Origin: Saccharopolyspora galaxeae
GTDB lineage: Bacteria > Actinomycetota > Actinomycetes > Mycobacteriales > Pseudonocardiaceae
Reading direction: 5' to 3'
Length of the DNA: 64,000 nt
NCBI RefSeq assembly: GCF_016526145.1
Contig: NZ_JADDUE010000015.1
Coordinates: 54,168-118,167, forward strand
Each line of letters starts with the position of its first letter. The stretch's first letter is position 1. A program made the translations under genes and the position numbers. Shown piece by piece: positions 43,130 through 59,634 of the stretch. The notes under the pieces are model-generated. The model was not told the origin of the DNA. It saw nothing but the letters and a program-made list of their open reading frames with translations, and ran no database searches.

Positions 43130-43183
43130 CAAGATCGCTCCCAGTCGATTCGGGTAGCCATCGTATCTGCTAGGGCCAGCCAG

Positions 43184-43200
43184 TATGCGCGGTACGCATA
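43184..43200. promoter_or_regulatory. Candidate operator in divergent region
   Basis: TATGCG-CGGTA-CGCATA is a perfect 6-base inverted repeat in the 161-base gap between the TPR regulator and the divergent small gene. It is placed as an autoregulatory site of that regulator would be. Confidence 0.45.
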
Positions 43201-43290
43201 TTTTTCATGCGCGATCCGGGCAATCGTGCCGGCTGTGCGGCCATAGCTTCTACATACGCCAGCACCAACGACGTGAGGAGGTGTCTTCGA

Positions 43291-43611: not shown

Positions 43612-43800
43612 TCGTCCGGTGCCCGCTTGATGTGGCGCGGGCGCTGGGTCGAGGGCCGTGCGGTGCGGATGAAGCCCCCCGCTTCCGCACCGCGCGGTCC
43701 GCAATTTCCCACCGAGAAACGAAGAAGCGCAGGACGCCCAGTTCCCGTCCAACCCACTCAACGAGCACTCACCATCCAGGCACGGACTCAAGGAGTTCTG

Positions 43801-44076
43801 ATGATCCAACAGCACACGTCGGCCCCGCCGAAGACCGGTGACGTGGTCGAGCTTGGAAAACAGATCCACGACCGGTTGGGCGAAGTCCTGTTCGCACTTC
43901 CGGGCCGCAGCACCGTCACCTACGAAGAACTCGGCGATCTTGGCGCCCGGTTGCGCGGCCTCGCCAAGATCTTCGACCGGTACGCGCCCACCCGCCCGAT
44001 GGCTGAGCGCCCCGGCTCGGCCACAGCTCCACAGGAGAACGCGCGAGTCTGGGTTTTCCCGGGCCAGCAGCGATAA
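43801..44076 (+). CDS. Small hypothetical protein
   Basis: A 91-residue hydrophilic, mostly helical protein (ELGKQIHDRLGEVLFALPGR) with AAGGAG five bases before the ATG. It has no membrane segment, cysteines or known motif. It is followed by a strong hairpin. Confidence 0.65.
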   Translation: MIQQHTSAPPKTGDVVELGKQIHDRLGEVLFALPGRSTVTYEELGDLGARLRGLAKIFDRYAPTRPMAERPGSATAPQENARVWVFPGQQR

Positions 44077-44130
44077 CCGACTCCCGGCAAGAGCGTGCCG
44101 TGCTCCCCGACACGAGCGCTCCGGCCGGGC

Positions 44131-44176
44131 GTGGTCTGTGCCGCCAGGACATCCCTCCACCGGCGGCACAGACCAC
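44131..44176 (+). terminator. 15-base perfect hairpin
   Basis: GTGGTCTGTGCCGCC (44131-44145) and its exact complement (44162-44176) enclose a 16-base loop, 54 bases after the small gene ending at 44076. Most likely its terminator. Confidence 0.6.
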
Positions 44177-44297
44177 AACCCCAAGGCGCAGAGCAGGAAT
44201 CGACATCGGCAGCGCCCCGCATCGCTGCCGGTCCGGATCCCGTGCCGCGCCCGAGCCGGTTTCCGCCCCGAAAGAGAACCGGCTGGCAATGCGGGGG

Positions 44298-44360
44298 CTC
44301 GATCACCACGCCCGCCCCGAGCGGATCTCGCCGCGGCTCGATCCGCGTGTGGTGATCGAG
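44298..44360. repeat. 12-base inverted repeat
   Basis: CTCGATCACCAC (44298-44309) and GTGGTGATCGAG (44349-44360) can pair, with flanking GGGG/CCCC adding to the stem. It lies about 180 bases upstream of the HAD-Nudix gene and may be a second terminator or an RNA control element. Confidence 0.4.
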
Positions 44361-44540
44361 TCCCCAGGCAGACGCGTGCTCGTATTCCGCACGCACCCCA
44401 GGCCACTCATTGCGGAAAGTCTCGACCTTGTCAGCATCCTGACTTGGCTCGACCGCCTACGACTGCCGCGCCGAATATGCCTACCAATCCGTGCCGAAGC
44501 TCCTACGCAACGGCACACCGTCCTATCAGGAGAGTTGTGC

Positions 44541-45671
44541 ATGAACCGTGGAATCAGTGTGGTGTCGCTGAGCGTCGGCAGGCTGCTAGGGCACACGTAC
44601 GGGCAGAGCCTCGGCGATGCATTGGCCACGGCATCACCGAAGGACCCGGCCACCGTCGCCGCGGTCGTGCGCACCCACCTGCACACCGCCACCGCGATCA
44701 GCGACGAGCTGATCCGCCAAGTCGCGGCCGACCTCGCGCTTCCTCCCGGGCAGCTCGCCGATCTGCTGCACACACCACGGCCACTGCTGTTGAATCCGAC
44801 CGCGCGGGCGCTGATCGCAGGACTCCGCGACGCATGTCCCGACATCCGAGTCGTGGTCTGCTCCAACCTCGCCTCCGCCGACCACGTCCACGCGAACGCG
44901 GTGCGCGATGAACTCGGACCGCTGCTGGACGCGGCCTACTTCTCCTGCGAGACCGGCCTGGCCAAAGGCAACGGCCCTGCCATGTTCGAGCACCTCGCTC
45001 GGAACCATAGCGTCGAAATCGGCGAGATCGTTCACGTCGGCGACACGCTCCTGGAAGATGTCCAGGCACCGCTGCTGGCCGGAGCACGTGCCTTGTGGGT
45101 TCACGCCGACCATGCGCGCACTCCCCGCGTCGCCGGACCGGATCGCTACCGTGCTGTTCCCGACCTGGCCGAGGCGATCCGCGAACTTCGTGAATGGATA
45201 CCGGAAAGCCAACCTCGTCCCGCGTTACCGGTCCGCGCCGCAGCACTGATCCGCGATGTCCAACAACGCATCTTGCTGGTACGCGGTCCCGACGACGAAG
45301 ACTTCTCGCTGCCCGGCGGCCGGTGCGAGGCCACCGGATCCGACTCGCCGCCCACCGCGATGGCCCGCGAAGTCCACGAAGAACTTCGGCTGGCGGTCAC
45401 GCCCGGCAAGCTAGTGTGGGCTGGCTGGTCCGAAGCCGAATCCGCCACCGGTGAAAACAAGATCCACTTCTTGTTCGAGGCGCACATCGTGGGGACCAGC
45501 GTCCCGGTTCCGGACGCCAGCGAGGTCGCCGAGATCCGCTGGTCTGGCCACCACGAGGCGCTGCGCCTGCTGCATCCCGCCGAAGCCGACCGGCTGCACC
45601 GCATCGGTTGCGACCGCAGCCACGGATGGCAGTACGACACCACCCGGCCACCACGGGCTCAGGGCCCCTAG
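44541..45671 (+). CDS. HAD-like / Nudix hydrolase fusion
   Basis: A 376-residue two-domain protein. Residues 1-215 resemble a HAD phosphatase (VVVCSNLASADHV, then AKGNGP with the conserved Lys, and HVGDTLLEDVQAP), but no N-terminal DxD nucleophile is seen where it is expected (VVSLSVGRLLG), so phosphatase activity is doubtful. Residues 230-360 are a Nudix domain with LPGGRCE and AREVHEELRL; the box has a slightly altered spacing. It could hydrolyse a modified nucleotide. Start ATG 44541 behind CAGGAG. Convergent with the XRE operon. Confidence 0.85.
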   Translation: MNRGISVVSLSVGRLLGHTYGQSLGDALATASPKDPATVAAVVRTHLHTATAISDELIRQVAADLALPPGQLADLLHTPRPLLLNPTARALIAGLRDACPDIRVVVCSNLASADHVHANAVRDELGPLLDAAYFSCETGLAKGNGPAMFEHLARNHSVEIGEIVHVGDTLLEDVQAPLLAGARALWVHADHARTPRVAGPDRYRAVPDLAEAIRELREWIPESQPRPALPVRAAALIRDVQQRILLVRGPDDEDFSLPGGRCEATGSDSPPTAMAREVHEELRLAVTPGKLVWAGWSEAESATGENKIHFLFEAHIVGTSVPVPDASEVAEIRWSGHHEALRLLHPAEADRLHRIGCDRSHGWQYDTTRPPRAQGP

Positions 45672-45682
45672 GTCTTGGTGCC

Positions 45683-46561
45683 TTACGAAGAAGCTGCACC
45701 GGATCGCCTGCGGAGTTCCGTGGAGCTCTGGGCCAACAGGGTTTCGAGCTGTGCGCCAGTGATGGCGGCATCGTGGAGCTGCGCGAAGAAGTCCTCGTAG
45801 GCGCGAACGTCGTCGGGCGAATCGAGACGCTGCTGTGCGGTGAGGGACTCGATGAGGACGTGGTCGTCGTAGAGCAGGAAGTTCGTCAGCGGAAACACGG
45901 GCATGGCCGCGGTGAACGGCACGACGCCGATGTCGACCTGCGAGTAGCCGAGCAGGGCGAGCAGCCGGTCCAGCTGACCCGCGAGGGTCCGAGGGTCTCC
46001 GAAATGGGTGTGCAGGGCGGCCTCACCCATGATGATCCGGATCGGTTCCTGCCGGGGCTGGTAGAGGACTTGCTGCCGTTCCATGCGTTTGCCGACGATC
46101 TGGTCGATTTCCTCGTCGGCTACTCCGGCGGAAGCTGGGCCGCAGGGGCGGGTGAGAACTTCACGCGCGTAGGCGGCAGTCTGGAGCAGTCCGGGCATCA
46201 TCGCGGGCTGGAACTCCGCGATGCGCGCGGAGGCGGCATCTTCGTTCGTGGTCGCCTGCTGCTCGGCGACAGCACCGCCGTGCTGGCGGTAGCGCTGGCC
46301 GAAGGTGGCGTACTCGATGCGGGCCGCCTCGGCGAGTTCGAAGAGCTCGTCCAGTTGCTCGGCGGTGGCATCGACAGCCTCGCCCCACCGGCGAAGGTCG
46401 TCGTCGGTGGGACGCTGACTGCCTTGCTCGAGCTTCGACACCCGCGTCTGGTGCCAGTCCAGATGACGCGCCAAGGCGCTGCCGGAGGCAAACGCGGTCG
46501 CGCGCAGCTCGCGAAGACGTCGAGCGAGCAGTGCTCGCTGCGGCGTGTTCGGGCCCGGCAC
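45683..46561 (-). CDS. XRE-family regulator with DUF5753 domain
   Basis: A 292-residue protein with an N-terminal helix-turn-helix (LARHLDWHQTRVSKLEQGSQ) and the C-terminal DUF5753 ligand domain (FQPAMMPGLLQTAAYAREVL; IGVVPF). Such regulators are abundant in actinomycetes and often pair with small DUF397-type partners. GTG 46561 is behind AAGGGAA, 15 bp after the DUF6879 gene, so all three genes form an operon. Confidence 0.92.
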   Translation of the reverse strand: MPGPNTPQRALLARRLRELRATAFASGSALARHLDWHQTRVSKLEQGSQRPTDDDLRRWGEAVDATAEQLDELFELAEAARIEYATFGQRYRQHGGAVAEQQATTNEDAASARIAEFQPAMMPGLLQTAAYAREVLTRPCGPASAGVADEEIDQIVGKRMERQQVLYQPRQEPIRIIMGEAALHTHFGDPRTLAGQLDRLLALLGYSQVDIGVVPFTAAMPVFPLTNFLLYDDHVLIESLTAQQRLDSPDDVRAYEDFFAQLHDAAITGAQLETLLAQSSTELRRRSGAASS

Positions 46562-46576
46562 GCTGGTTCCCTTCTT

Positions 46577-47116
46577 CTAACGCGAGTCGTACTCGCTCCA
46601 CGATATTGACTGCGCAATCGCGGCCTCGCGCTGGGCGCACGCATCGGCGATGCACTGCGGATCGGTGGTCGGCTCGGCGCCGAGCCACGCGCCGTCCGGG
46701 GAGTAGCGCATGGTCCACAGCCTGCGTGCGTCGATGAGCCAGTAGTCGGCGGCGTGCACGTCGGTCGGCCATTGATCTCCGCGGACGGGAATGATCCGGA
46801 CGTCCTCCCCCGCTTGAACGTTGGGGGCGTACGAGGCCAGTTCGAACCGTACGTAGTCGGTCAGCGGTTCGGTCACTACGTGCACGCGCTGGAGCCGGCA
46901 GCCCTGGCCGACGCGGTGACGGGTGCGTTCGCACCACTGCTGGAGTTCCGCGGTGACCGGGATGCGGCCGGTGCGTCGCCACTCGGCAAAGGCGTCGTCC
47001 TCGCTGCTACCGGAGTAGTTCTGCAACGTCTCCAGACGAAACAGCGAATAGCGGAAGGCGGCAAGCTCGTGACGAAGCTGGTCGATGCCCTCGCGCAGGT
47101 CTTGCGCGGGCGTCAC
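46577..47116 (-). CDS. DUF6879-family protein
   Basis: A 179-residue protein with the DUF6879 features: FRLETLQNYSGSSEDDAFAE near residue 25, RVHVVTEPLTDYVRFEL in the middle and DYWLIDARRLWTMRYSPDG later. The GTG start at 47116 overlaps the preceding stop (GTGA). Function unknown; the family commonly occurs beside XRE regulators. Confidence 0.88.
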   Translation of the reverse strand: MTPAQDLREGIDQLRHELAAFRYSLFRLETLQNYSGSSEDDAFAEWRRTGRIPVTAELQQWCERTRHRVGQGCRLQRVHVVTEPLTDYVRFELASYAPNVQAGEDVRIIPVRGDQWPTDVHAADYWLIDARRLWTMRYSPDGAWLGAEPTTDPQCIADACAQREAAIAQSISWSEYDSR

Positions 47117-47331
47117 AGGGCCTTCTCCTGGTAAAGGCGGGCGACCTCGACGAGGATCTCGGGCTTGATCAGGACACCCGACTCGCCCGGGAGCAGATTT
47201 TCCATGTTGGCGAAGGTCTCCGGGTCCATCTCGAGGCCCTGGACGGCCATCATGCCGTTCTCGGCGAGGTAGACGCTCTGGCAGCCGGTGGGGTTCGACT
47301 CCGGGTCCTTGCAGATCTTGTGCAGGTGCAC
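47113..47331 (-). CDS. Small DUF6879-linked protein
   Basis: A 72-residue protein: a Cys-containing N-terminus (KICKDPESNPTGCQSVYLAE) followed by an acidic middle. GTG 47331 is preferred, five bases after GGGAGG; a longer frame from 47418 would run through the promoter repeats. Co-translated with the DUF6879 gene. Confidence 0.7.
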   Translation of the reverse strand: MHLHKICKDPESNPTGCQSVYLAENGMMAVQGLEMDPETFANMENLLPGESGVLIKPEILVEVARLYQEKAL

Positions 47332-47417
47332 GACGGCCTCCCGTCTCGTCGGGGCGCGAACGCCACGATCTTCGCTTAGAACGACCTTGACTGTCCATAA
47401 CCTTGCTGACAACCTCA

Positions 47418-47581: not shown

Positions 47582-48892
47582 GTGAGCACATCTTCCGAAC
47601 AGGACCCGGACGACTCGCTGGAACCGGCGGCGAGCCCTGCCACCGGGGCGACCCCGATTCAGCCGCCGCGGGCGGCGATGGTGCAGCGGTTGTGGAAGCT
47701 CAACGCGCTGCGTTCGGAACGTGTCGCGGAGGTCTTCGCCACGGTCGACAGGCACGTGTTCGCACCGAGTGTGCCGGCGGAAGAGGTCTACGACGCTACG
47801 ACCGCAGTTCGGACGAAGTGGGACGAGCACGGCAGCGCGATCAGCTCGATCTCCGCTCCGCAGATCCAGGCGTTCATGTTGGAACAAGCGGATGTCCGGC
47901 CGGGGATGCGCGTGTTGGAGGTCGGCTCGGGCGGCGTCAACGCCGCCATGCTGGCCGAACTCGTCGGCGACACGGGCACCGTGACCACAATGGACATTGA
48001 TCCGGAGATCACCGGCCGAGCCCGGAAACTGTTGGATGCGGCGGGATACCCGCAGGTGCACGTGGAGTGCGCGGACGCCGAGCATGGCGTGCCCGCACGA
48101 GCACCTTTTGATGTGGCGCTGGTGACGGTCGGCTGCTGGGACCTTCCTGCCGCGTTGATGGACCAGCTTGCCGAGAGCGGACGCGTCGTCGTTCCGCTGC
48201 GGATGCGGGGGATTACGCGGTCCCTGTCGTTGCGTCGCGCCGGTGACCACTTGCTGGCGGATTCGGCCGAGGTGTGCGGGTTCGTCAAGGCACAAGGTCT
48301 TGGCGCGCACCAGGAAAGAATGTTGCTGCTGCACGGCGACCGGATCGCTCTGCGCTTCGATGACGGCACCGCACCGGCCGATTCGGCCCGGCTGGACGGC
48401 GCGTTGGGTACCGACCGCGTTGACGTGTGGTCCGGCATCACCGTGGAAGCGATGGAGCCGTTCGACAGCTTGGGGCTGTGGCTGGCTTCGGTGTTGCCGG
48501 GCTCGTGCCGGATCGCGGTCGATCCCGACTACGACCCGGACACCGACAGCGGTCCGGCGATGGTCGTCCCCGAAGGCCGCTGGTTCCCAGACGCCTACGT
48601 CAACTCGCACGAGGACTCGTTCGCCTACCTCGCTACCCGGCGCCTCGACGACGGGCTCTTCGAGTTCGGCGCCCACGCCTTCGGCCCGCACGCCGGAGAG
48701 GCCGCCGAGGCGATGGTGGAGCAGATCCGCGCGTGGGACCGCGACTATCGCCACGGCCCTGACCCGAGCGTCGCCGTCTGGCCGTACGACGCCCCGGACG
48801 AGGCGCTGGAGTCCCCGGATGCCGCTGCGACGACGGTGATCCCGAAGCGGCACACCACCATCACGATCTCCTGGCCGCACCCTTCGGCGTAG
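47582..48892 (+). CDS. PCMT-like methyltransferase, FxLD lanthipeptide system
   Basis: A 436-residue protein. The N-terminal half is a protein-L-isoaspartate methyltransferase-like SAM domain (MRVLEVGSGGVNAAMLAELV, then TMDIDPEI), and the C-terminal half is the extension found in the FxLD-system methyltransferases of class I lanthipeptide loci. Related enzymes methylate an Asp side chain of the modified peptide, which then forms a succinimide or isoaspartate. GTG 47582 follows AGGAAG. It directly precedes the precursor gene. Confidence 0.93.
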   Translation: MSTSSEQDPDDSLEPAASPATGATPIQPPRAAMVQRLWKLNALRSERVAEVFATVDRHVFAPSVPAEEVYDATTAVRTKWDEHGSAISSISAPQIQAFMLEQADVRPGMRVLEVGSGGVNAAMLAELVGDTGTVTTMDIDPEITGRARKLLDAAGYPQVHVECADAEHGVPARAPFDVALVTVGCWDLPAALMDQLAESGRVVVPLRMRGITRSLSLRRAGDHLLADSAEVCGFVKAQGLGAHQERMLLLHGDRIALRFDDGTAPADSARLDGALGTDRVDVWSGITVEAMEPFDSLGLWLASVLPGSCRIAVDPDYDPDTDSGPAMVVPEGRWFPDAYVNSHEDSFAYLATRRLDDGLFEFGAHAFGPHAGEAAEAMVEQIRAWDRDYRHGPDPSVAVWPYDAPDEALESPDAAATTVIPKRHTTITISWPHPSA

Positions 48893-48942
48893 CAACCGAG
48901 TCGGCCAGGTTCGTTGGAACGGAACGATAAGGAAGGAAACGC

Positions 48943-49128
48943 ATGGCGGCCAACACGACCACGCTGTCCCGCACCGAGGACGTCGACATCAGCGACGATT
49001 TCACGCTCGACTTCCAGGTGATCGAGTCCGCGTACCCGCTCGCGAAGTTGAGTTGCGACACCGATGACGGGTGCGGGCAGACCTGCTCCACCAGCGCCTG
49101 CAACAGCCAGGCCAACAACCCGTCGTGA
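48943..49128 (+). CDS. FxLD-family lanthipeptide precursor
   Basis: A 61-residue precursor. The leader carries the FxLD motif (F20-T-L-D23) in an acidic stretch. The core follows, with Cys at 38, 44, 48 and 53 and Ser/Thr at 37, 40, 47, 49, 50, 51, 55 and 61 for dehydration, so up to four thioether rings are possible. Asp42-Gly43 lies inside the core and is a favoured site for succinimide formation by the PCMT-like enzyme. ATG 48943 is behind AAGGAAGG. It stands 50 bp after the methyltransferase and 74 bp before LanB. Confidence 0.93.
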   Translation: MAANTTTLSRTEDVDISDDFTLDFQVIESAYPLAKLSCDTDDGCGQTCSTSACNSQANNPS

Positions 49129-49202
49129 ACCCTGCCCTCGCCGGGACGCCGAATCCCCGTGGCGCCCCGGCGGGGACGCTCTGTCCGATCCAGGAGGTTT
49201 GC

Positions 49203-52200
49203 GTGGCCACGCCGTGCCTTTTTCGTCACGCCGAGTTCGTACTGGTTCGAGCGAGCACCGACCCGGGAGGACTGAGCCTGCCGCGGCTGGATCTGCACAC
49301 TGCCGAGGACGCCGAGACGACCGGCCGGGAATGGCTCACCGAGTTATGGGGCCGCGATGTCGTACGCACCGCCTTCGGTGTCGCCAGCCCAGCACTGTGC
49401 GAGCAGATCGCCGCCGCAGTCGACGGCGCGAAACTCAACCGCCGATCCTGGCGCCGCTTGCTGGTCTCGACGTGCTCCTACGTCCTGCGCTGGCAGCAGC
49501 GCCCCACTCCCTTCGGCCTGTTCGCCGGAGTGACCACCGCAGCTATTGGCGGGTCCACGCACGTCGTCTTCGGCGAGCAGCATCAGCCGCACCGGCAGAT
49601 CGACCCGAACTGGCTCCACAAGTTGATCAGCGAGCTCGAATCCGATCCCGAGGCGCTGGCGAAAGCATCGCTCGTGGTCAACAACGCGGGCACCGTCCGC
49701 GGCGACCGATTCGTCGTCCCCAACCATTTGTCCGGTACCGCTGATGAAAAATCCTCGGCGCAGGTGGCCGCTGGGCTCGATGAGGTCGAACTGGCGCTGC
49801 GTCGCACACGCCCGGTCGATGCCGCACTTGCTGCAGCGCGGGTTCCGATCCCGGGACGAATGCTGATCGACCGACTGCACCGTGAATTCCCGTCGGTTCC
49901 GCGTGAGCAGGTCACGACTCTGATTAGCGGACTTGTCGCGCACCGCGTGCTCGTGACCAGCCTCCGGGCTCCCGCGTCCTACCCGAAGCCCGCCGAACAT
50001 GTTCTCGCGCAGCTGGACGATTCCCACCGCGACAGCGACGAGAACGACCGTGTCGGCGATGCTCGCGAGGCTCTGCGCTCCTTCTTCAGCTCGGGCTCGC
50101 AGGCGAAATCCACCGTGTCCGAAGCCACGAGCTCGGCTCGCTCGACACCTCCGACCAGTGTGGACGTCTCGCTGGACGGACGGATCACGCTTCCGGAGCC
50201 CGTGCTGTGCGAAGCCGAGTCGGCGGCCTCCGTCCTGCTCGAGGTGAGTCCGAGCCCGTTCGGCACTGCACCGCGGCGCGACTACCACCTGCGGTTCCGA
50301 GAACGGTACGGCTCCGGTGCGCTGGTCCCGGTACGCGAGTTGGTGTCCGACTCCGGGCTCGGTTTCCCAACCGGTTTCCTCGGCGCGGCCCGCGAACAAG
50401 GGGCTCGCTTCCTGACCGATCGCGACGCCGCCCTGCAAGCGATGCTGCAGGAGACCGTCCTCGATGGACGGACCGAACTCGCCTTGTCCGAGGAACTGAT
50501 CGAGCAACTCTCCGTCGGAGACCACCGCGATCTGACGCCTCCTGAACGCGTCGAGCTGGCGTTCACGATCCACACAACCTCGACCGAGGCCCTGGACCAG
50601 GGACGGTTTCAGCTGTGGGTCACCGGGGCTCCGGTGCCGACCTCCAGCATGGCCGGGCGCTTCGCCAGCGTGCTCGACGAGCACGCGCGGCAACGGCTGT
50701 CCCGCACCTATCCCCAAGGGGACGAGGTGATGGTCGCCCAACTGTCTTTTGCCCCGCGGCGCATCGCCAATGAAGCCGTCACCCGCACTCCGGACCTGTT
50801 GCCGTGGCTGTTGCCCATCGGCGAGCACCCGCCGGAGCTCGGCGCCGACTCAGCTCGGTTACTTCATCTCGACGACCTCGCGGTGACCGCCAGCTCCACC
50901 CAGTTCTTCCTCATCCACCGCCCCAGCGGAAAGCCTGTGCACCCCTACGTGCCACACGCCTTGGAAACCACCGTCTACACGCCACCACTGGTGCGTTTCC
51001 TCGCCGAACTGCCCACCGCGCGGCGGGCGGTGTTCGGCCCCATCGACTTCGGCGCGAGCCGCACCCTGCGATTCCTGCCCCGCATCCGACACGGCCGCAG
51101 CGTGTTGTCCCCGGCGCGGTGGTTGCTACACGTCACCGATCTCCCCGGCGCACGCGCCGCGAGCAGTGAATGGGAGCAAGCCTTGAAAAGGTGGCGCGAG
51201 CGCTGGCGAGTTCCCGCCCACGTGCTCCTCGTCGAAGGAGAACAACGCCTCCCGCTCGACCTCGACGAACCGACCCAGCGCAGCCTGCTGCGCGTGCGCC
51301 TGAACCGAGCAGGCAAGGCGGAGCTTCGCGAAGCAGGCGATCCCGCACGACGCGGCTGGACGGGACGCGCGTGCGAATTCCTGGTCCCCCTCACCGCTAG
51401 CCCGATCCCGCCCGCGCCGCCGGTCAGCCGGAAAGTCGTCGTCCGCGATGACAGCGTCGGCTCGCCCGCCCGAAACGACGGCGCCTTCCCGGGCACTTCA
51501 TCGCTCGTCTTGTCCACATTGGAAGGACATCCGCAGCGGTTCGACACCATCCTGGCCGACCATCTCCCGAACCTGCACCAGCACCTCGACAACGAGATCC
51601 AACGCCTGTGGTTCCGCCGCCACCACGACACCACCCGACCTGACTCGGACCACTCGCTACAGCTATGGCTGAGGCTGACCAGCGCCGACCGCTACGGATC
51701 CGCTACGACATGCCTGGCCGAATGGGCCGAAGACCTGCGCGCGTCCGGACTGCTGGCCCAAGTCAGCTTCGAGACCGCCTGGGCACAACCCGGCAAGTAC
51801 GGCGACCTGTCCGCCGCCGAGTGGGTGTTCGCGACCGATTCCGCAGCCGCACTTGCCGAGATCTCCTGTGCCGAACAGCTTCAGCTTGCTCGAGCTGCGG
51901 TGGCTGCGGTGTCGATGGTTGATCTCGCCACAGCCCTCGCATCGGACGCGAAGAAGGGCTGGGAGATGGTGATCGCCAGCCTCCCGCAGCAGACCGGCCC
52001 GCTCGACGCTGTTCTGCGCGAGAACGCCCTCCGCTTTGCACGCGACCTACGACAGGATCAGCCAGCCGCCCGCGACGATGTACTGCGCGCGGCATGGGCC
52101 GAGCGTCGCGAAGCGCTCGAAACGTACCGAGCGCAGCTCGACCGTCCGCCGGAATCAGTCCTCCGAGCGCTGTTGCACGAACATTTCCGGAGGACCATCG

Positions 52201-52292
52201 CGGTTTCCCGCGAACAGGAGGAGATCACCAACCGGCTCGCCCGCGCCGTCGCGTTGCAGGCGCTCGCGCTGACCCAACGAGGTGTTGAATGA
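49203..52292 (+). CDS. Lantibiotic dehydratase LanB, full length
   Basis: A 1029-residue class I dehydratase. The glutamylation domain has the conserved RWQQRPTPFGLFAG (about 95-108), where the arginines and Thr bind glutamyl-tRNA in NisB. The C-terminal elimination domain (about 770-1029, from PHQRFD-like and LWLRLTSADRYG segments) is present. It uses Glu-tRNA to glutamylate Ser/Thr and eliminates Glu to give dehydro residues. GTG 49203 follows CAGGAGG. Its stop overlaps the LanC ATG. Confidence 0.95.
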   Translation: MATPCLFRHAEFVLVRASTDPGGLSLPRLDLHTAEDAETTGREWLTELWGRDVVRTAFGVASPALCEQIAAAVDGAKLNRRSWRRLLVSTCSYVLRWQQRPTPFGLFAGVTTAAIGGSTHVVFGEQHQPHRQIDPNWLHKLISELESDPEALAKASLVVNNAGTVRGDRFVVPNHLSGTADEKSSAQVAAGLDEVELALRRTRPVDAALAAARVPIPGRMLIDRLHREFPSVPREQVTTLISGLVAHRVLVTSLRAPASYPKPAEHVLAQLDDSHRDSDENDRVGDAREALRSFFSSGSQAKSTVSEATSSARSTPPTSVDVSLDGRITLPEPVLCEAESAASVLLEVSPSPFGTAPRRDYHLRFRERYGSGALVPVRELVSDSGLGFPTGFLGAAREQGARFLTDRDAALQAMLQETVLDGRTELALSEELIEQLSVGDHRDLTPPERVELAFTIHTTSTEALDQGRFQLWVTGAPVPTSSMAGRFASVLDEHARQRLSRTYPQGDEVMVAQLSFAPRRIANEAVTRTPDLLPWLLPIGEHPPELGADSARLLHLDDLAVTASSTQFFLIHRPSGKPVHPYVPHALETTVYTPPLVRFLAELPTARRAVFGPIDFGASRTLRFLPRIRHGRSVLSPARWLLHVTDLPGARAASSEWEQALKRWRERWRVPAHVLLVEGEQRLPLDLDEPTQRSLLRVRLNRAGKAELREAGDPARRGWTGRACEFLVPLTASPIPPAPPVSRKVVVRDDSVGSPARNDGAFPGTSSLVLSTLEGHPQRFDTILADHLPNLHQHLDNEIQRLWFRRHHDTTRPDSDHSLQLWLRLTSADRYGSATTCLAEWAEDLRASGLLAQVSFETAWAQPGKYGDLSAAEWVFATDSAAALAEISCAEQLQLARAAVAAVSMVDLATALASDAKKGWEMVIASLPQQTGPLDAVLRENALRFARDLRQDQPAARDDVLRAAWAERREALETYRAQLDRPPESVLRALLHEHFRRTIAVSREQEEITNRLARAVALQALALTQRGVE

Positions 52293-53521
52293 ACCGGCAC
52301 CACTTCGCCGCGCCCGGCACCACGAAGCACGCCGAACTCCTCAGCGTTCTGGCAACGCCCCTGACCGAACCCGACGCCGGGCAGCCCGAGCTGGCCCAAT
52401 CGTTGTCCCGCGGAGCCGCCGGCATCGCCCTCTGGCACCTCGAACGCGCCCACCACGATGTCCCCGAAACACGGCCTCTGCTGCACCAGTGGGTGCGCGC
52501 CGCGCTAGCTTCGCCGATCAGTTCAGCCGAAACTGCGGGCCTGCACGCAGGTCTGCCCGCGATCACGTTCCTACTGCACCTTGCCGAGCCCGTACTGCCC
52601 GAATATCGCCCGGCCATCACCGAGTTCGACCAGCACCTGAGACGGCTCGCCCACCGCCGGGTCGACGCCGCGCTGGAACGCATCCGGCACGGCCTTCCGA
52701 CTCGTTTCGCCGAGTACGACCTGATGCGCGGGCTGACCGGGATCGGGCACCTGCTGCTGCACCATCAACCAGGCTCCGATGCCCTGGCCCGGGTACTGGA
52801 CTACCTCGTGCGGCTGACCAAACCGATCACCGCCGACGGGACGACACTGCCGGGATGGTGGGTCGACCACGCACCCGACCAGCTGCTGCCGACACCGGGC
52901 GGGCACAGCAACCTCGGCATTGCCCACGGCATCACCGGCCCCCTCGCCGTGCTCGCCCACGCGGCACGGCGCGCGATCACCGTCGATGGCCAATACGACG
53001 CGATCGAGCGGATCTGCGCGCACCTCGACCACTGGCAGCAGGACAGCAACGCCGGACCCTGGTGGCCGTATTGGATCGACCACCACGACTACGTCCTCGG
53101 GCGCCTCACCAACCACCAGCCGGGACGGCCATCGTGGTGCTACGGCACCCCAGGGATCGCCCGAGCACAACAAGTCGCAGGACTCGCCACCGGCGATACC
53201 ACTCGGCAACACGTCGCGGAGGAAGCACTGCTGGCCTGCCTCAACGACGCCAGCCAAACTGACCTGATCAGCGACATCGGCCTATGTCACGGATGGGCCG
53301 GGCTGTACCTCACGGCAGCTCGAACTGCCCACGAAGCAGCCACCCCGGACCTCGCCGCAATGCTGCCTTCCCTCGCACAGCAACTCGTCCGACACAACGA
53401 AGCCACTCCGCCTCCCGAACTCGGCTTGCTCAACGGCGCTACCGGCGTCGCCCTCACCCTTCACGCCGCCAGAACGGGCATCCCGACATCCGGATGGGAA
53501 CAATGCCTCCTGATCAGCTGA
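52289..53521 (+). CDS. Lanthionine cyclase LanC
   Basis: A 410-residue cyclase. The zinc ligands Cys284 (SWCYGTPG), Cys333 and His334 (GLCHGWAG) are all present, as is His213 in GIAHGITG. It adds the cysteine thiols of the precursor to dehydroalanine or dehydrobutyrine. The ATG overlaps the LanB stop (ATGA), so the two are co-translated. Slightly shorter at the C-terminus than many LanCs, which suggests its end is trimmed by the next gene. Confidence 0.95.
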   Translation: MNRHHFAAPGTTKHAELLSVLATPLTEPDAGQPELAQSLSRGAAGIALWHLERAHHDVPETRPLLHQWVRAALASPISSAETAGLHAGLPAITFLLHLAEPVLPEYRPAITEFDQHLRRLAHRRVDAALERIRHGLPTRFAEYDLMRGLTGIGHLLLHHQPGSDALARVLDYLVRLTKPITADGTTLPGWWVDHAPDQLLPTPGGHSNLGIAHGITGPLAVLAHAARRAITVDGQYDAIERICAHLDHWQQDSNAGPWWPYWIDHHDYVLGRLTNHQPGRPSWCYGTPGIARAQQVAGLATGDTTRQHVAEEALLACLNDASQTDLISDIGLCHGWAGLYLTAARTAHEAATPDLAAMLPSLAQQLVRHNEATPPPELGLLNGATGVALTLHAARTGIPTSGWEQCLLIS

Positions 53522-54507
53522 ACACCGCGGCAGCGCCGGCCGAGCTCATCGCCACGGCCATCCGCAGCGTGACGGCAGGCGAAATCCTCACCGAAGCCGC
53601 CGCAGCCCACGACCTCGATGTCGGCGAGCTCGCTGACGCACTCGACACCTACGACCGGGCCGGACGCGCCGCCGTGTACGACCGCGCGGCAGATGCGACT
53701 TGGTGGCAAGCACATCTCGAATTCAGCGCATGGGACCAAGCCGAACTCGTCGCAGCCTCAGCCCTCGCACCACTCCTGAACGCTTGGAGCCGGACCGGCC
53801 TCCTCCGGCAATGGTGGTTCATCCGGAAAGCACCGAGCTGGCGCCTCCGCCTGCAACCCGACACCGACCACGATGCGCTGCACACCCACGCCACCACCGA
53901 GCTCGACCGCCTTGTCCAACACGGCCACCTCGCCAGCTGGCGCCCGAGCCACTACGAACCCGAAGCCCTCGCATTCGGAGGCCCCACCGGAATCCGCATC
54001 GCACACACCCTGTTCAGCGCCGACAGCGCCAACCTCCTCGCCCACCTCCACACCCGACACGTGCCGCTCGGCCGCATTGAACTCTCGATGCTGCTGTGCA
54101 CCCAGCTCTTCCGCGCCGCGGGACAAGAACAGTTCGAGGCCGCCGACATCTGGCACCGCGTCACCTACCTGCGGCCGCACCCGCAGCACACCAGCACCGA
54201 CACCGGACACCACACCGACTTGACCCAGCAGCTACGCACGATGCTGACCTACGCTCGACCCACCGGACCGCTCTTCGCCCCCGAAGGCCCCCTCCACGCA
54301 GCCCACGACTGGGCACACGCCTTCCACCAAGCCGGACGTGACCTCGCCCGCGCAGCACAAGAATCCAAGCTGCACAGGGGAATCCGACACATCCTCGCCC
54401 ACCACGTGATCTTCCACTGGAACCGGCTCGGCCTCGACACCAACACCCAGCACGCACTCGCCCACGCCGCGACCTGTGCACTGCTCCCGCTTGAGACCAC
54501 GCTTTGA
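53494..54507 (+). CDS. Stand-alone thiopeptide-type bacteriocin biosynthesis protein
   Basis: A protein of about 337 residues containing the thiopep_ocin/SpaB_C domain (TWWQAHLEFSAWDQAELVAA; LLRQWWFIRKAPSWRLRLQP), the same fold as the LanB elimination domain. An N-terminal helical region of about 55 residues precedes it. Because LanB already has this domain, this second copy may perform an extra elimination, bind the leader or add another modification. It starts inside the end of LanC at ATG 53494 or 53503. Confidence 0.92.
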   Translation: MGTMPPDQLNTAAAPAELIATAIRSVTAGEILTEAAAAHDLDVGELADALDTYDRAGRAAVYDRAADATWWQAHLEFSAWDQAELVAASALAPLLNAWSRTGLLRQWWFIRKAPSWRLRLQPDTDHDALHTHATTELDRLVQHGHLASWRPSHYEPEALAFGGPTGIRIAHTLFSADSANLLAHLHTRHVPLGRIELSMLLCTQLFRAAGQEQFEAADIWHRVTYLRPHPQHTSTDTGHHTDLTQQLRTMLTYARPTGPLFAPEGPLHAAHDWAHAFHQAGRDLARAAQESKLHRGIRHILAHHVIFHWNRLGLDTNTQHALAHAATCALLPLETTL

Positions 54508-54641: not shown

Positions 54642-55172
54642 CTATGCGTCGTGCAGTGCTTCGCGTACCTTCTGGTGAATACTCTCTAGGAGGATTGTAA
54701 GGTCGTTCGCGATCACGTCGACGCCACCGGATTCGACCTCGTATGTGGAACCGACGAGAGCGCCGCCTTGGAGGAGGTAGATCCTTCCATCTGATCGACT
54801 CAGGGCGAACAGCCCTCCACCACCGTCGGATCCGATGACGATGATCGAGTCCTCGACAGCGCCCGTGACGCGGGTGGGTTGACCGTCTTTCGCACCGTCG
54901 ACAACAGCCGTGGCCGATTCGATGAACAGGCCGTTCTGCACGTCGGGAAGTGACACTTCGTGAACTTCCGAGTAGAATTCGAGCAGGCCCGAGGGAGCAC
55001 CCATCGACGAAAGTTCGGCGATGGCTTCGCTTTCACCGCCTTCTTCCGACCTGGTCACCACATTGTCGTCGGGAGGGTATCCGAATGTGTCCTCGAATCC
55101 GCGCATGAGTTCGTCGAGGTCTTGCGACATCGACTGGATCCAGCTATTTAGGCTCTGCCCAGAAATATTCAC
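54642..55172 (-). CDS. SUKH (SMI1/KNR4)-like immunity protein
   Basis: A 176-residue acidic protein matching the SMI1/KNR4 immunity fold: an N-terminal helix-rich part with LMRGFEDTFGYPPDD and a core with GAPSGLLEFYSEVHEVSLPD, followed by IIVIGSDGGGGLFALS. SUKH proteins neutralise polymorphic nuclease toxins. It begins (GTG 55172, AGGGG upstream) inside the last codons of the RHS toxin, so toxin and immunity are co-translated. ATG 55130 is an alternative start. Confidence 0.87.
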   Translation of the reverse strand: MNISGQSLNSWIQSMSQDLDELMRGFEDTFGYPPDDNVVTRSEEGGESEAIAELSSMGAPSGLLEFYSEVHEVSLPDVQNGLFIESATAVVDGAKDGQPTRVTGAVEDSIIVIGSDGGGGLFALSRSDGRIYLLQGGALVGSTYEVESGGVDVIANDLTILLESIHQKVREALHDA

Positions 55173-58100
55173 CGTAGCCCCTATCGATCTGGCTCGTTAC
55201 GTCTTCGATCTCAGCTCGCGTGGGGTTCGGGTTGAGATCGTGGAACCACTTCCACTGGTTCGTGATTTCCTGGTGGACGTTGGCCCCGCGAGATCCCATC
55301 CTACTACCGGGGATCCCGCGCATGTTGGACGGCGCGTCGAAGTCGAAGTCGTGGAACTCCGGGTGGTTCCGGTACTCCTGCGGCACCGCGTGGTGGGCGT
55401 CCCAGTCCTTCGGGAGTCGCTGGAATCCGTTCTTGTTCAGCCAGGCGTTGAATCTGCCACGGTAGTTGTCCTTGCTGATGGAGGGGAATTCGGGGTCGCG
55501 TCCTGCCGCCTGGCCGCTCTGGTAGGGCGAGAGCCCTACCGGGTCCGATAACCGGAAGGGGTTGTCGACGTACGAGGTCGGGTTCGGCGCCGGTCCCAGT
55601 CCAAGCGGGTCCGCGGATGCGTAGTGTCCTGTTTCGGGCGAGTAATGCCGGTGATAGTTGTAGTAGAGTCCACTTTCCTCATCGTGGTACTGGCCGGGGA
55701 AGCGCAGCGGCGTAGCGGCGTCGTGTTCCCGTCGACCGGGCACCGTGCCCCACGTTGTCATTCGGCTATGCCAAGCGACCGTGCCGTCATCATCGACCAG
55801 CTCCGCGGGGGCGCCCACGAGATCGGCGACAATCAGGTGGAAGCGCTCGTCGATGATTTCTTGGGATGCCTCGCGGAGAGATCCGCGTTCTCGTTGGGTG
55901 ACCGGGCGGAACGTTCCTGGTTCGTAGTCCCACACCGTCACCGAAGCATTGGCGGCATTCGGGTCTTCCGCGCCTTCATGAGTGTGGGATTGCTCTGCGA
56001 GTTGGGCGCCGTCCCAGGCGAACGTGACCTGCTCGGCGATCGAGCCGTCCGCGGCGAGGCGTTGCTTGGCGGTGCGTCGCCCCAAGGCGTCGTAGCGATA
56101 GCGCCAGTGGGATCCCTCCGGTGTGGCCACACGCGTAAGCCGGTCATCGGCGTCCCAGGTGTAGCGCCATGTGGCGGGCTTCTGCGACAGGCGCTTCTGC
56201 TGCCGCAACACCAGCCGACCTTGCGCGTCGTGTTCGTAGCGGACTTTGCCGGCTCGCCGGATCAGGCTGCCGCTGTATTCGCGCTCGCCCAACGCCTCGG
56301 ACTCGCTCTCCGGCGCAGGCCACGACGCACTGGTGATGTTGCCCGCTGTGTCGTAGGCGTAGCGTTCACTCCACCCGGAACCGTGCACAGCGGTGACTCG
56401 TCCGACGTGGTCGAGGTCGAAGCGACGAGGCCCCGCGATCTGGTCCTCGATGCCGACCAAGTAGCCGTCGGGGCGGTAGGCGTAGGCACGGTGCTGGTTG
56501 TGCCTTCCGGTCGTTCCGATCACGGCCTGTGCCGTGAGCTGATGGTTGGCGTCCCATTCCTGGGTCAGCGCCACATTCGCTCCGAGGGACCTGCGAATTT
56601 CCCGCCCCGCCGCATCGTGGCTGAACCGCACCGTGCGTCCCCCGGTGTGCAGCGCGAGCGGATTGCTTCCCTCGTCGAAATCCCACACGCTTTCCGCGCC
56701 GGACGGAGTGAGTCGTCGGGTGCGCCGTCCCAGCGCGTCGTAGGTCGAGCTGAGCCTGCGGCCGTTCACGGATTCAGCGAGCACACGGCCCAGCGAGTCA
56801 CGTTCAAAGCGCACCTGTGCGTCGTCGTTGGTTGCTTCCAGCAGCCTTCCGAGGGCGTCATAGCGGAACGACGCCACAGATCCTCCACTGCGGCGTTCGA
56901 GGACCTGGCCCAGCGGATCACGGAGGAACGAGGTCGTCTCGCCCGCTCCGTTGGTGCGTGCAACGAGCTCACCGGCGGCGTCGTGCTGGTAGGTGAGGGT
57001 CCGTCCGTCGAAGTCGTGCTCGGCGGTGAGGTTGCCCGCGGCGTCGTATTCGTAGCTCCACACCAGGCCGCGCTGGTTCGTGACGCTGACGAGTCGGAGT
57101 TCGGTGTCGTAACCGAATTCCAGTCGCGTGCCGTCGGGACGGACTTCGGCCGAGGGCAGTTCGAAGTGCGTGGCTTCGGTGCGGGTGGTCTGACCGAGCG
57201 GGTCGATGTGGGTGCGGAGATTGCCCTCGCCGTCGTAGAGCCACCGTTCGGTTGCACCGTCAGGCAGGACGCGCCACGCGGGTTTTCCGTCGACGGTATA
57301 GCCGAGCCGGGTCACGCCGCCGACCGGATCGATGCTGGCCACGACGCGGCCGAAACCGTCCCGCTCATACCGGGTCGTCCCGCCGGTCGGCCCAGTAATC
57401 GCCGTCGGTAGTCCCGCCGCGTTGGTTTCGACCGTACTGGTATGCCCCAACGTGTCGGTGACAGCAGTGAGATGACCGCGCTCGTTGTAGCCGTAGGTTG
57501 TTACCGCGTCCACCGGGTCGATGACCCGGGTGAGGTTGCCAGCGTCGTCGTACTCGTGGCGTTTGAGCGTGCCGTCGGGTGCGGTCATCGTGACTGGCTG
57601 CCGCAGTTCGTTGTACTCCACGGAGATCCGGTTGCCGTCCGGTCTGAGGACGGTCGTGACGTTCCCGTTGTCGTCGTACCAGTACCTCGTGGTGCGCCCG
57701 AGGGGGTCGGTGCGCGAGGAAAGCCGCCGGTGCTCGTCCCATTCGGACAGCGTCTCGCTGCCCAACGGGGCGACCTCGCGGATGATTTTGCCGTCATCGT
57801 TGAGGTGGTATTCGGTCTGATTGCCGAGGGAGTCGATGAGGTAGGTGATCGAGTTGTCGCTGTCGTACGCCAGCGTGCAGCTGAGGAACCCGTCTGCGCC
57901 TTCCCCGCGGACGCAGCGGCCTTCGCCGTCGTAGGTGAAGCGGTACGAGCTGCCGACGCGGTCTTTCCAACCGATGATGCGACCGGCGTCGTCGTAGTCG
58001 AACCGCATCGGTTGTCCGGATGCGTTGATCACCTCGGTGAGCCGGTCTCCCCGGTAGCGGTAACGCATCAGCGGCACGTCCGCGCCGTTGTCGGCGCCGC

Positions 58101-59634
58101 ACAGATACAGCGCGGTCACGAGACGGTCGGTGCTCTCGATCCGGATCCGGTAGCCACCGCTGTGGCGGACCTCGGTGGGCAGACCGGTGTCGTCGTGGAC
58201 GAAGTCGATGCGGTGGCCGTTGCGGTCGGTGATCGCCGTGAGCGGCCAGTGCGCGTCGTGCTGCGTGAAGTGCAGGAACCGTCCCTGCTCCACGTCGGTG
58301 ATCACGTACTCGCCGTCCTCGGTACGGATCAGCGGCCATTGCGGCCCGACACGCGGGAGAACCGTGACCCCGGGCATCGGGTCCGGGTAGGCCAGCGCGA
58401 GGGCGTCGTCCGAGGCGAAATACACGCCATCGCCGTCGACTTCCAAGCGCTGGTCCAATGTGGAGGCCCAGCTCGGCCCGAATGCCTGCCCGATGCGGTA
58501 CGACGACAGGTGGGTCCGGCGCAGCACCAACGGAAGAACGCCGTCGAGCTCGACGTCAGTCTGCGTCTGCAGCATTCGCCCGCTGTTGACGTCGATCGGG
58601 TCTCCGCCCGTGGTCAGGGATTTCGTCTCGTCCGTGTGGCTGGCGAGGTCGCCGCCGTGCTTGGTGCCTCGCGCGTTCTTGGCGACCTTGGACAGGCCCC
58701 CGACCACTTTGCTGCCGAGTTTGGCTACCTTGCCGAACGGTATGACCGTTAAGGCGGTGTCGACGAGTATCGAGGTGAGACTGCCTTCGCCGGTGGCGGC
58801 GTAGATCCCGGCGTCGATGGCCAGCGCGGCGCCGCCGGTGATGCCGGCGGCGATGAGGAAGGCGCCGCCGACGGCGTTGCCGACCACCGGGATCGCCTGC
58901 AACACCACACCGATCACCGCGAGCGCGCCCGAGACGACCTTCAGCGCCGAGGAGATCTCCTTGAGCACGTCCTTGTTCTCGCGGATGAAGTCCTGACCCT
59001 GCCCGATGAGGTCGTAGCCGGCCGGGGGCTCTTTGAACCGCATCCCCTTGGCGTCGTTAATGCGATTCGTGCATTCGCGGGCCGCGGCGGTCATCTCCGT
59101 GCGCAGACCATTCGCCTTGTCCACGCAGTCCTGCCACGCCGCCCGCGCCGACGACAACGCCGCCGACGCATCCCCCGCATCCGACTCATACGCAGCACCC
59201 GGCGGCGGCGCGTGTCCGGCCGGAGCATGGGCCTGTGCGTCACGGACCTTGTCCGCATGAGCACGGTCCGCACTCTCCGCCCGCTCGACACGCCCCTCGC
59301 TGGCCTTGAGCTGCTCCCACAAGCCGGGCGCCTGATGCGCCAGCGGTCGCATCTTGCCCTGCAGCTCCGACAACCGCGACGAGAAGGTGTTCAGCGCCGT
59401 GCCGACCTGGCTGAAGGCCGTGCCGGTCACCCGCAGGTCCGGCGGCAGCTCCGAATCGATCTTGTCCCGGAACTGCTCCGCCTCCGGACCCTGGAACTCG
59501 CCGGTATCCATGCCGGTGATCCGCTCCGCCGCGTGCGACGCGGACCCGCCGAAACGGTCATACCGGCGGGCCGAACCCGCGATCGCTTCCGGTGATCCAC
59601 CCAGCGAGAACAAGTGCTCCGGAAAATCCGCCAT
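55144..59634 (-). CDS. RHS-repeat polymorphic toxin with AHH/HNH-like nuclease tail
   Basis: A 1496-residue toxin. The first 200 residues are helical and WXG100-like; a hydrophobic region follows (about 215-295), then DUF6531 (PIDVNSGRMLQTQTDVELDG), more than 15 YD/RHS repeats (RYDALGR type) and the RHS core end (PLRFPGQYHDEESGLYYNY, ending in DPVGL). The last 125 residues are the toxin: DAHHAVPQ, then NMRGIPGSR and VHQEITNQW, an HNH/AHH-type nuclease. ATG 59634 behind GGGGG is preferred. Secretion route is not evident; no PAAR or VgrG is encoded. Confidence 0.93.
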   Translation of the reverse strand: MADFPEHLFSLGGSPEAIAGSARRYDRFGGSASHAAERITGMDTGEFQGPEAEQFRDKIDSELPPDLRVTGTAFSQVGTALNTFSSRLSELQGKMRPLAHQAPGLWEQLKASEGRVERAESADRAHADKVRDAQAHAPAGHAPPPGAAYESDAGDASAALSSARAAWQDCVDKANGLRTEMTAAARECTNRINDAKGMRFKEPPAGYDLIGQGQDFIRENKDVLKEISSALKVVSGALAVIGVVLQAIPVVGNAVGGAFLIAAGITGGAALAIDAGIYAATGEGSLTSILVDTALTVIPFGKVAKLGSKVVGGLSKVAKNARGTKHGGDLASHTDETKSLTTGGDPIDVNSGRMLQTQTDVELDGVLPLVLRRTHLSSYRIGQAFGPSWASTLDQRLEVDGDGVYFASDDALALAYPDPMPGVTVLPRVGPQWPLIRTEDGEYVITDVEQGRFLHFTQHDAHWPLTAITDRNGHRIDFVHDDTGLPTEVRHSGGYRIRIESTDRLVTALYLCGADNGADVPLMRYRYRGDRLTEVINASGQPMRFDYDDAGRIIGWKDRVGSSYRFTYDGEGRCVRGEGADGFLSCTLAYDSDNSITYLIDSLGNQTEYHLNDDGKIIREVAPLGSETLSEWDEHRRLSSRTDPLGRTTRYWYDDNGNVTTVLRPDGNRISVEYNELRQPVTMTAPDGTLKRHEYDDAGNLTRVIDPVDAVTTYGYNERGHLTAVTDTLGHTSTVETNAAGLPTAITGPTGGTTRYERDGFGRVVASIDPVGGVTRLGYTVDGKPAWRVLPDGATERWLYDGEGNLRTHIDPLGQTTRTEATHFELPSAEVRPDGTRLEFGYDTELRLVSVTNQRGLVWSYEYDAAGNLTAEHDFDGRTLTYQHDAAGELVARTNGAGETTSFLRDPLGQVLERRSGGSVASFRYDALGRLLEATNDDAQVRFERDSLGRVLAESVNGRRLSSTYDALGRRTRRLTPSGAESVWDFDEGSNPLALHTGGRTVRFSHDAAGREIRRSLGANVALTQEWDANHQLTAQAVIGTTGRHNQHRAYAYRPDGYLVGIEDQIAGPRRFDLDHVGRVTAVHGSGWSERYAYDTAGNITSASWPAPESESEALGEREYSGSLIRRAGKVRYEHDAQGRLVLRQQKRLSQKPATWRYTWDADDRLTRVATPEGSHWRYRYDALGRRTAKQRLAADGSIAEQVTFAWDGAQLAEQSHTHEGAEDPNAANASVTVWDYEPGTFRPVTQRERGSLREASQEIIDERFHLIVADLVGAPAELVDDDGTVAWHSRMTTWGTVPGRREHDAATPLRFPGQYHDEESGLYYNYHRHYSPETGHYASADPLGLGPAPNPTSYVDNPFRLSDPVGLSPYQSGQAAGRDPEFPSISKDNYRGRFNAWLNKNGFQRLPKDWDAHHAVPQEYRNHPEFHDFDFDAPSNMRGIPGSRMGSRGANVHQEITNQWKWFHDLNPNPTRAEIEDVTSQIDRGYGEYFWAEPK

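What the first reader, a model, noticed from the sequence alone, without database searches (positions are those of the whole stretch)
47582..54507. Complete FxLD class I lanthipeptide locus with an extra elimination-domain protein
Methyltransferase, precursor, full-length LanB, LanC and a separate thiopeptide-type protein are contiguous on one strand, with the LanB, LanC and thiopeptide-type genes overlapping. LanB already has its own elimination domain, so the added SpaB_C-like protein has no obvious job. No transporter or leader protease is encoded nearby. The product of such systems is not one I can name, so the final peptide may be new.
Basis: partly seen in the sequence, partly recalled or inferred. 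Interest (0 to 1): 0.82.

Follow-up and report, generated by a model that had tools for sequence, protein, structure and literature searches.

The report
Lanthipeptide cluster with relocated lyase step
An actinobacterium that is probably a Saccharopolyspora carries five adjoining genes for a predicted ring-bearing peptide in which the large dehydrating enzyme has lost key residues of its built-in lyase site, so the small separate lyase-type protein next to it likely does that step instead and is predicted to give the peptide's rings an unusual three-dimensional shape.

Summary
In detail: methyltransferase, FxLD precursor, full-length LanB, LanC and a free-standing SpaB_C-type protein lie on one strand at 47582-54507. 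The extra protein belongs to a known kind: it carries the published signature of syn-glutamyl lyases (Lys109, Arg114, Arg116; no Arg826 or His961 equivalent), the group that makes (E)-dehydrobutyrine and d-allo-l-methyllanthionine (PMC9486935, PMC9890492). What I did not find in print is that LanB's own lyase site has lost NisB Arg784, Arg786, Glu823 and Arg826. Of 146 related LanBs, 79 lost one or both of Arg784/Arg786. All 78 evaluable losers sit beside a free-standing lyase with the syn signature, though 62 of them were sampled through that lyase; 14 of 14 LanBs without a syn-lyase and 12 of 12 with a fused one are intact. A separate lineage has dropped the lyase domain outright. So LanB likely only glutamylates and the free-standing protein likely eliminates, sending Thr40 and Thr47 through (E)-dehydrobutyrine; Asp42 likely becomes isoaspartate. 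A new variant of a known kind; nothing was tested at the bench. Against it: the LanB lyase domain is not decaying as a whole and keeps its His base here.

The parts
47582..48892 (+). FxLD-system O-methyltransferase (PIMT/LanSA type); likely acts on Asp42 of the core, giving aspartimide/isoaspartate
   Evidence: TIGR04364 489.7 bits, PF01135 126 bits; OlvSA precedent from passages of PMC13001092
48943..49128 (+). Precursor peptide, 61 aa: leader motif F20-T-L-D23; core Cys38, Thr40-Asp41-Asp42-Gly43-Cys44, Thr47, Cys48, Ser49, Thr50, Ser51, Cys53, Ser55
   Evidence: TIGR04363 53.5 bits; translation; the only match over the cut-off in the genome
49066..49068 (+). Codon of Asp42, the Asp of the TxDGC motif that the methyltransferase likely modifies
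   Evidence: Sequence; TxDGC motif described in PMC10787088 (passages)
49203..52292 (+). LanB, 1029 aa: glutamyl-transferase motif R-x3-R-x-TPFG intact; C-terminal glutamyl-lyase domain remodelled
   Evidence: PF04738 638 bits, PF14028 67 bits; start from AGGAGG-GTG; motif residues invariant in the 25 LanBs of A2
51525..52244 (+). LanB glutamyl-lyase domain (Pfam match) with, in NisB numbering, Tyr776->His807, Arg784->Gln820, Arg786->Trp822, Glu823->Gln862, Arg826->Lys865; His961 and Arg966 equivalents kept (His992, Arg997)
   Evidence: NisB letters and numbers
52289..53521 (+). LanC cyclase, 410 aa, with the WCYG and CHG motifs (zinc ligands, recalled)
   Evidence: PF05147 136.9 bits; motifs read and counted
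53503..54507 (+). Free-standing glutamyl lyase of the syn type by signature, 334 aa, with about 60 extra helical residues at its N-terminus
   Evidence: TIGR03891 179.9 bits; Lys109/Arg114/Arg116; model pLDDT 87; nearest solved folds are LanB chains
53827..53829 (+). Codon of Lys109, the syn-lyase lysine (CoiSA Lys46 / SptBb Lys92 equivalent)
   Evidence: Invariant in 136 of 136 aligned free or fused lyases; the CoiSA K46A result is from PMC9486935 and PMC9011353

Best explanation
The locus encodes a class I (FxLD) lanthipeptide system whose LanB carries a glutamyl-lyase domain without the conserved glutamate-binding arginines and whose free-standing SpaB_C-type protein carries the full residue signature of a syn-glutamyl lyase, so LanB would likely only glutamylate Ser/Thr and the free-standing protein would likely carry out the eliminations. 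Shown by sequence: the genes, the lost LanB residues, the syn-lyase signature, and that in the loci sampled here this LanB loss was seen only beside such a lyase. Inferred: the free-standing enzyme removes glutamate with syn geometry, so Thr40 and Thr47 become (E)-dehydrobutyrine and Ser residues become dehydroalanine; LanC adds the four cysteines to give up to four thioether rings, with d-allo-l-methyllanthionine where coi has ll and dl; after cyclisation the methyltransferase methylates Asp42 in the Thr40-Cys44 ring, giving aspartimide and then mostly isoaspartate. Leader removal and export are likely done by proteins encoded elsewhere.
For: (1) The free-standing protein has Lys109, Arg114 and Arg116 with the +5/+7 spacing of CoiSA Lys46/Arg51/Arg53, Ala at the NisB Arg826 position and no His at the His961 position; in 136 aligned free or fused lyases Lys is 136/136, the first Arg 134/136, the second 135/136. 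(2) The window LanB reads H-Q-W-Q-K-H-R at NisB 776, 784, 786, 823, 826, 961, 966. The 67 LanBs that keep Arg784 and Arg786 (the defining pair) also keep Glu823, Arg826, His961 and Arg966 in 67 of 67, and the second LanB of the same genome is intact. (3) Of 146 unique LanBs, 79 have lost Arg784 and/or Arg786. All 78 evaluable ones have a free lyase, with Lys/Arg/Arg in 78 of 78; 14 of 14 without a syn-lyase and 12 of 12 with a fused one are intact. In the methyltransferase-drawn sample alone it is 16 of 16 evaluable. (4) On a tree of the glutamyl-transferase part alone, 77 losers form one clade at support 100 with no keeper inside; L177 and L223 fall outside, and L177 is separate from the main clade by AU test, p = 0.0002. 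(5) In a lineage with lyase-methyltransferase fusions some LanBs have no lyase domain at all (clean in L113, L241, L249), so a syn-type lyase can be the only lyase found in an FxLD locus. (6) Precedent: SptBb is the lyase of SapT's split LanB, and CoiSA(ED) eliminated at all three Thr when CoiB's lyase was inactivated.
Against: The LanB lyase domain is not decaying freely: at near-equal mean N-domain identity (0.469 and 0.466) its mean pairwise identity is 0.427 in remodelled and 0.445 in canonical LanBs, and lower by 0.03-0.07 in four of five identity bins. Arg826 is kept in 60 of 75 remodelled LanBs, His961 in 63 of 75 and Arg966 in 74 of 75, so some activity may remain. In coi both lyases are needed, and CoiC could not close all rings when only the syn-lyase worked. 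The CoiA1 Thr57 position is, by my alignment, Ser55 here, and CoiA1-T57S was poorly processed. 62 of the 78 evaluable losers were drawn through the lyase itself, so its presence there is by construction. The two arginines define the classes, so their top rank in the scan is partly by construction. L223 as a separate loss is not firmly supported (p = 0.087). A canonical LanB elsewhere in the genome could in principle help in trans.
Confidence: 0.62

Rival explanations
1. Division of labour as in coi: the remodelled LanB lyase is still active and makes (Z)-dehydro residues at some sites, while the free-standing syn-lyase serves one or a few positions.
For: His961 and Arg966 equivalents are kept in the window and in most relatives; the domain keeps most of its overall conservation; in the related syn-lyase, R51A and R53A of CoiSA still eliminated, so the Arg pair is not absolutely needed in this fold; coi needs both lyases.
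Against: Glu823, Arg826 and His961 are invariant in the 67 LanBs that keep the Arg pair, while the window has lost the pair, Glu823 and Arg826; in the loci sampled, losses occur only with a free syn-type lyase; whole-domain loss is seen in another lineage.
Confidence: 0.26
2. The remodelled LanB domain has gained a different function (another adduct, a substrate-positioning or partner-docking role), selected beside the syn-lyase.
For: Switches rather than noise: Tyr776 is His in 52 of 68 and Glu823 is Gln or His in 56 of 68; the domain keeps most of its constraint; eight columns are more conserved than in canonical LanBs.
Against: Positions 784 and 786 are highly variable, which suggests freed rather than re-used positions; none of the eight columns is one of the seven NisB site positions that I tracked.
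Confidence: 0.07
3. The free-standing protein is not a lyase but a cyclase-like enzyme of the TbtD/PbtD [4+2] kind, as was floated in 2020.
Confidence: 0.04

Closest known systems
coi cluster of Streptomyces coelicolor A3(2) (CoiA1/CoiB/CoiC/CoiSA), PMC9486935
   Same: Class I precursor of the same kind, LanB, LanC, PIMT-type methyltransferase and an additional syn-type glutamyl lyase
   Different: In coi the syn-lyase is fused to the methyltransferase and CoiB keeps a working anti-lyase (His994); here the lyase is free-standing and LanB has lost Arg784/786, Glu823 and Arg826; by my alignment the core has an extra Cys at -2 and Ser at the Thr57 position
spt cluster of SapT (split LanB: SptBa + SptBb), PMC9011353 and PMC9890492
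   Same: Glutamylation and syn-elimination likely sit on two polypeptides
   Different: Here LanB still carries the lyase fold, and a PIMT-type methyltransferase and an FxLD core are present
olv cluster (OlvA/B/C/SA), via PMC13001092 and PMC9486935; the primary paper is not held
   Same: PIMT-type methyltransferase acting on a core Asp; class I LanB and LanC; Cys at -2 as in 6 of 9 unique no-syn-lyase cores
   Different: olv has no additional lyase
Class I clusters with full-length LanB plus an additional elimination-domain protein, PMC7268733
   Same: The same architecture was already noted there
   Different: The passages that I read do not examine whether LanB's own lyase residues are kept

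Membership tests
FxLD class I lanthipeptide system (TIGR04363/TIGR04364) | Precursor and methyltransferase over the curated cut-offs, with LanB and LanC | tested here: met
   53.5 bits (cut-off 30) and 489.7 bits (cut-off 320); LanB and LanC Pfam matches
Lanthimiditide (PIMT-modified lanthipeptide) | PIMT-type enzyme beside a core with TxDGC | tested here: met
   PF01135 match; Thr40-Asp-Asp-Gly-Cys44
Lanthimiditide (PIMT-modified lanthipeptide) | Asp actually converted to aspartimide or isoaspartate | not testable with these tools
   Needs the expressed peptide
syn-glutamyl lyase (SptBb/CoiSA group), free-standing protein | Lys in place of Tyr, two conserved Arg, hydrophobic residue in place of Arg826, no His base | tested here: met
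   Lys109, Arg114, Arg116, Ala157, Val302 or Ile303
syn-glutamyl lyase (SptBb/CoiSA group), free-standing protein | Makes (E)-Dhb / d-allo-l-MeLan | not testable with these tools
   Needs NMR or chiral GC-MS of product
Canonical LanB with an anti-glutamyl lyase | Arg784, Arg786, Glu823, Arg826 and His961 (NisB numbering) all present | tested here: not met
   Gln, Trp, Gln, Lys, His
coi-type cluster | syn-lyase fused to the methyltransferase and LanB anti-lyase intact | tested here: not met
   Free-standing gene at 53503-54507; LanB site changed
Split LanB (SapT type) | Glutamyl transferase and lyase encoded as separate proteins with no lyase domain on the transferase | tested here: not met
   LanB still matches Lant_dehydr_C at 67 bits; it may work like a split LanB
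[4+2] pyridine synthase (TbtD/PbtD) | Closest structural relatives are pyridine synthases | tested here: inconclusive

The most novel reading that the evidence does not exclude
A widespread third kind of class I dehydratase: full-length LanBs that are glutamyl transferases only, with a vestigial lyase domain, whose every elimination is done in trans by a syn-lyase. All threonine-derived rings, including the isoaspartate ring, would then come from (E)-dehydrobutyrine, giving all d-allo-l-MeLan or even the never-seen l-allo-l-MeLan. At least two, probably four, lineages of FxLD clusters have abandoned the built-in anti-lyase.
Probability: 0.45. Interest if true: 0.72.

Novelty: new variant of a known kind. 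Interest (0 to 1): 0.56.

Why it matters
Syn-lyase clusters are put at nearly one-fifth of class I lanthipeptide clusters (PMC9890492), and the published survey predicts that full-length LanBs all eliminate in the anti sense (PMC9486935). If LanBs like this one have no working lyase, a check of two arginines would sort such clusters into mixed-stereochemistry and likely all-syn ones, changing the structures predicted for many unexplored peptides. It would also show loss of a built-in catalyst after a second one was acquired, and would offer systems for studying syn-elimination without background anti-elimination.

Tried and rejected
Rejected: a pyridine-synthase role for the extra protein (weaker fold match; lyase signature). 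Rejected: sequencing error as the cause of the lost LanB residues (the same letters occur in the same-species genome, L046; the second LanB of this genome is intact). Not supported: free decay of the whole LanB lyase domain.

Led nowhere or left open: phmmer of the extra protein against solved structures gave 0 matches and a profile gave only weak ones. A model of LanB itself could not be made. The promoter and terminator scan gave 1 site of each kind, against shuffle means of 0.4 and 3.1. My regular expression for the lyase motif missed 15 of 131 loci with a lyase; the alignment is what I rely on. No locus titled Streptomyces coelicolor was among the 80 loci, so CoiA1, CoiB and CoiSA themselves were not aligned; I used their residue numbers from the papers.

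Rows dropped: LanBs with under 150 aligned residues in the lyase part or under 400 in the transferase part (which removed the LanBs without a lyase domain, looked at separately), and LanBs with identical lyase domains (156 to 146). L057 is scored 'edge'. Broken or partial LanBs (L166, L224, L260 and others) are listed and not counted; L192, with no recognised lyase domain in a 1094-aa frame and no LanC, was left unexplained. Precursors: 106 of 122 loci gave one; L167 was dropped as odd.

Not in print: the loss of LanB's lyase residues was looked for in paper searches and in the papers named in the report; subscription papers, preprints and supplementary files were not searched.
Full report
WHAT IS THERE. 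The window lies in a 6.4-Mb genome (G000:C6). That gives the genus by inference; the window's record itself is unnamed. The five genes stand at the stated coordinates in the order methyltransferase, precursor, LanB, LanC, free-standing SpaB_C-type protein. The locus is patchy in its genus: at E <= 1e-40, 2 of 6 genomes have the last gene, both of one species.

THE METHYLTRANSFERASE AND CORE. The methyltransferase is over the curated cut-off of the FxLD-system family. In olv, the related OlvSA acts after dehydration and cyclisation, methylates a core Asp and gives aspartimide, then 70-80% isoAsp (passages of PMC13001092). The core motif reported for most such precursors is TxDGC (passages of PMC10787088). 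The window core has Thr40-Asp41-Asp42-Gly43-Cys44, so Asp42 is the likely site.

THE LANB SURPRISE. LanB keeps a Lant_dehydr_C match, but anchored on NisB letters its site reads His, Gln, Trp, Gln, Lys, His, Arg at 776, 784, 786, 823, 826, 961, 966. [quoted passage not shown] The same letters occur in the same-species genome (L046), and the other LanB of this genome is canonical at all seven positions.

HOW GENERAL. Two samples were drawn by methyltransferase: 72 of 397 genomes of the order had a match over the cut-off (100 stretches fetched) and 33 of 158 of the class, own genome included (58 stretches). A third sample of 80 named loci was drawn by the lyase itself (80 kept of 576), so it is biased to loci that have it. 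After length filters and removal of duplicates, 146 LanBs remained of 156. Methyltransferase-drawn, window included (77): 34 intact with a free lyase, 12 intact with a fused lyase, 14 intact with none, 15 remodelled and 1 half-remodelled with a free lyase, 1 remodelled at a contig edge. Lyase-drawn (69): 59 remodelled, 3 half, 7 intact, each with a free lyase. 'Intact' means that Arg784 and Arg786 are kept; all 67 of these also keep Glu823, Arg826, His961 and Arg966. In 68 remodelled ones of the earlier set of 122, Glu823 remains in 2, Arg826 in 53 and His961 in 58. All 78 evaluable losers have a lyase with Lys, Arg and Arg.

A scan of all lyase-domain columns ranks 786, 784 and 823 first among those conserved in intact and free in remodelled LanBs. 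The first two are partly by construction, since they define the classes. The N-domain tree is independent of them: 77 of 79 losers form one clade at support 100 with no keeper inside. L177 and L223 lie outside; both have also lost His961 but keep Glu823 and Arg826. On 40 rows, grouping L177 with the main clade is rejected (p = 0.0002), as is L177 with L223 (p = 0.00005); L223 with the main clade is not (p = 0.087).

A FURTHER LINEAGE. Five LanB frames of 599-767 aa have no lyase domain and sit beside methyltransferase-fused lyases with the Lys: L113, L241, L245, L248, L249. L113, L241 and L249 end cleanly at the domain linker. L245 ends there too, but the start of its transferase part is in another frame. 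L248 ends earlier and may be a frameshift. They group with intact fused-lyase LanBs (support 94), not with the window's clade; the five together have support 25, four of them 100. Four of the five have cores with Cys two before the threonine of TxDxC.

CORE PEPTIDES. Precursors were found for 106 of 122 loci. In remodelled loci with a free lyase, 42 of 46 unique cores have Cys at -2, against 1 of 23 in intact free-lyase loci, 0 of 6 in fused and 6 of 9 in no-lyase loci. The Asp is present in 46 of 46. The residue two after the SAC-type cysteine, by my alignment the nearest match to CoiA1 Thr57, is Ser in 36 and Thr in 10. So the window's family joins an olv-like Cys to a coi-like lyase, and the coi target threonine is usually Ser. 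That leaves Thr40 and Thr47 as the likely threonines on which syn geometry would show.

MECHANISM. The likely order is glutamylation by LanB, elimination by the free-standing lyase, cyclisation by LanC, then methylation and imide formation at Asp42. Gene order methyltransferase-LanB-LanC-lyase holds in 69 of 74 remodelled loci with a free lyase. LanC motifs are kept in 72 of 75 remodelled loci. No step beyond sequence was tested.

LIMITS. The lyase domain of LanB keeps most of its overall conservation, and most relatives keep His961 and Arg966, so a changed rather than dead site is not excluded. In coi, the cyclase failed when only the syn-lyase acted; the window's LanC would have to be adapted. 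PMC12710340, PMC11855644 and PMC10880069 were seen as passages only, and the olv primary paper was not held.

Noticed in passing
L170:8981-10183 and relatives: A same-strand gene of about 390 aa with no Pfam or NCBIfam match lies at about the position just after the syn-lyase in 26 of 72 remodelled loci (not in the window); eight homologues of about 680-690 aa also carry PF14028, suggesting a partner that is sometimes fused to a lyase domain.
   Followed up: partly
L113:8012-13224: The same-species genome has a second FxLD locus in which LanB lacks the lyase domain and the lyase is fused to the methyltransferase.
   Followed up: yes
L032-L131 set: 45 of 101 order-level loci (window included) with an FxLD methyltransferase show no LanB in the fetched stretch, some of them near contig ends, so the methyltransferase family may have other contexts.
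   Followed up: no
window 54642-59721 (-): An RHS-repeat protein with a putative T7SS signal domain (1525 aa), with a small SUKH-like neighbour at 54642-55172 (below the Pfam cut-off), lies next to the cluster.
   Followed up: no
window 41756-47398 (-): NsdA-family TPR regulator, XRE-DUF5753 regulator and DUF6879 protein on the opposite strand; clusters that hold them recur near 23, 15 and 7 of 72 remodelled loci.
   Followed up: partly
G000:C12:26347-30725 (-), loci L272, L280, L281: A second LanB/LanC pair in the genome, with a canonical lyase site.
   Followed up: partly
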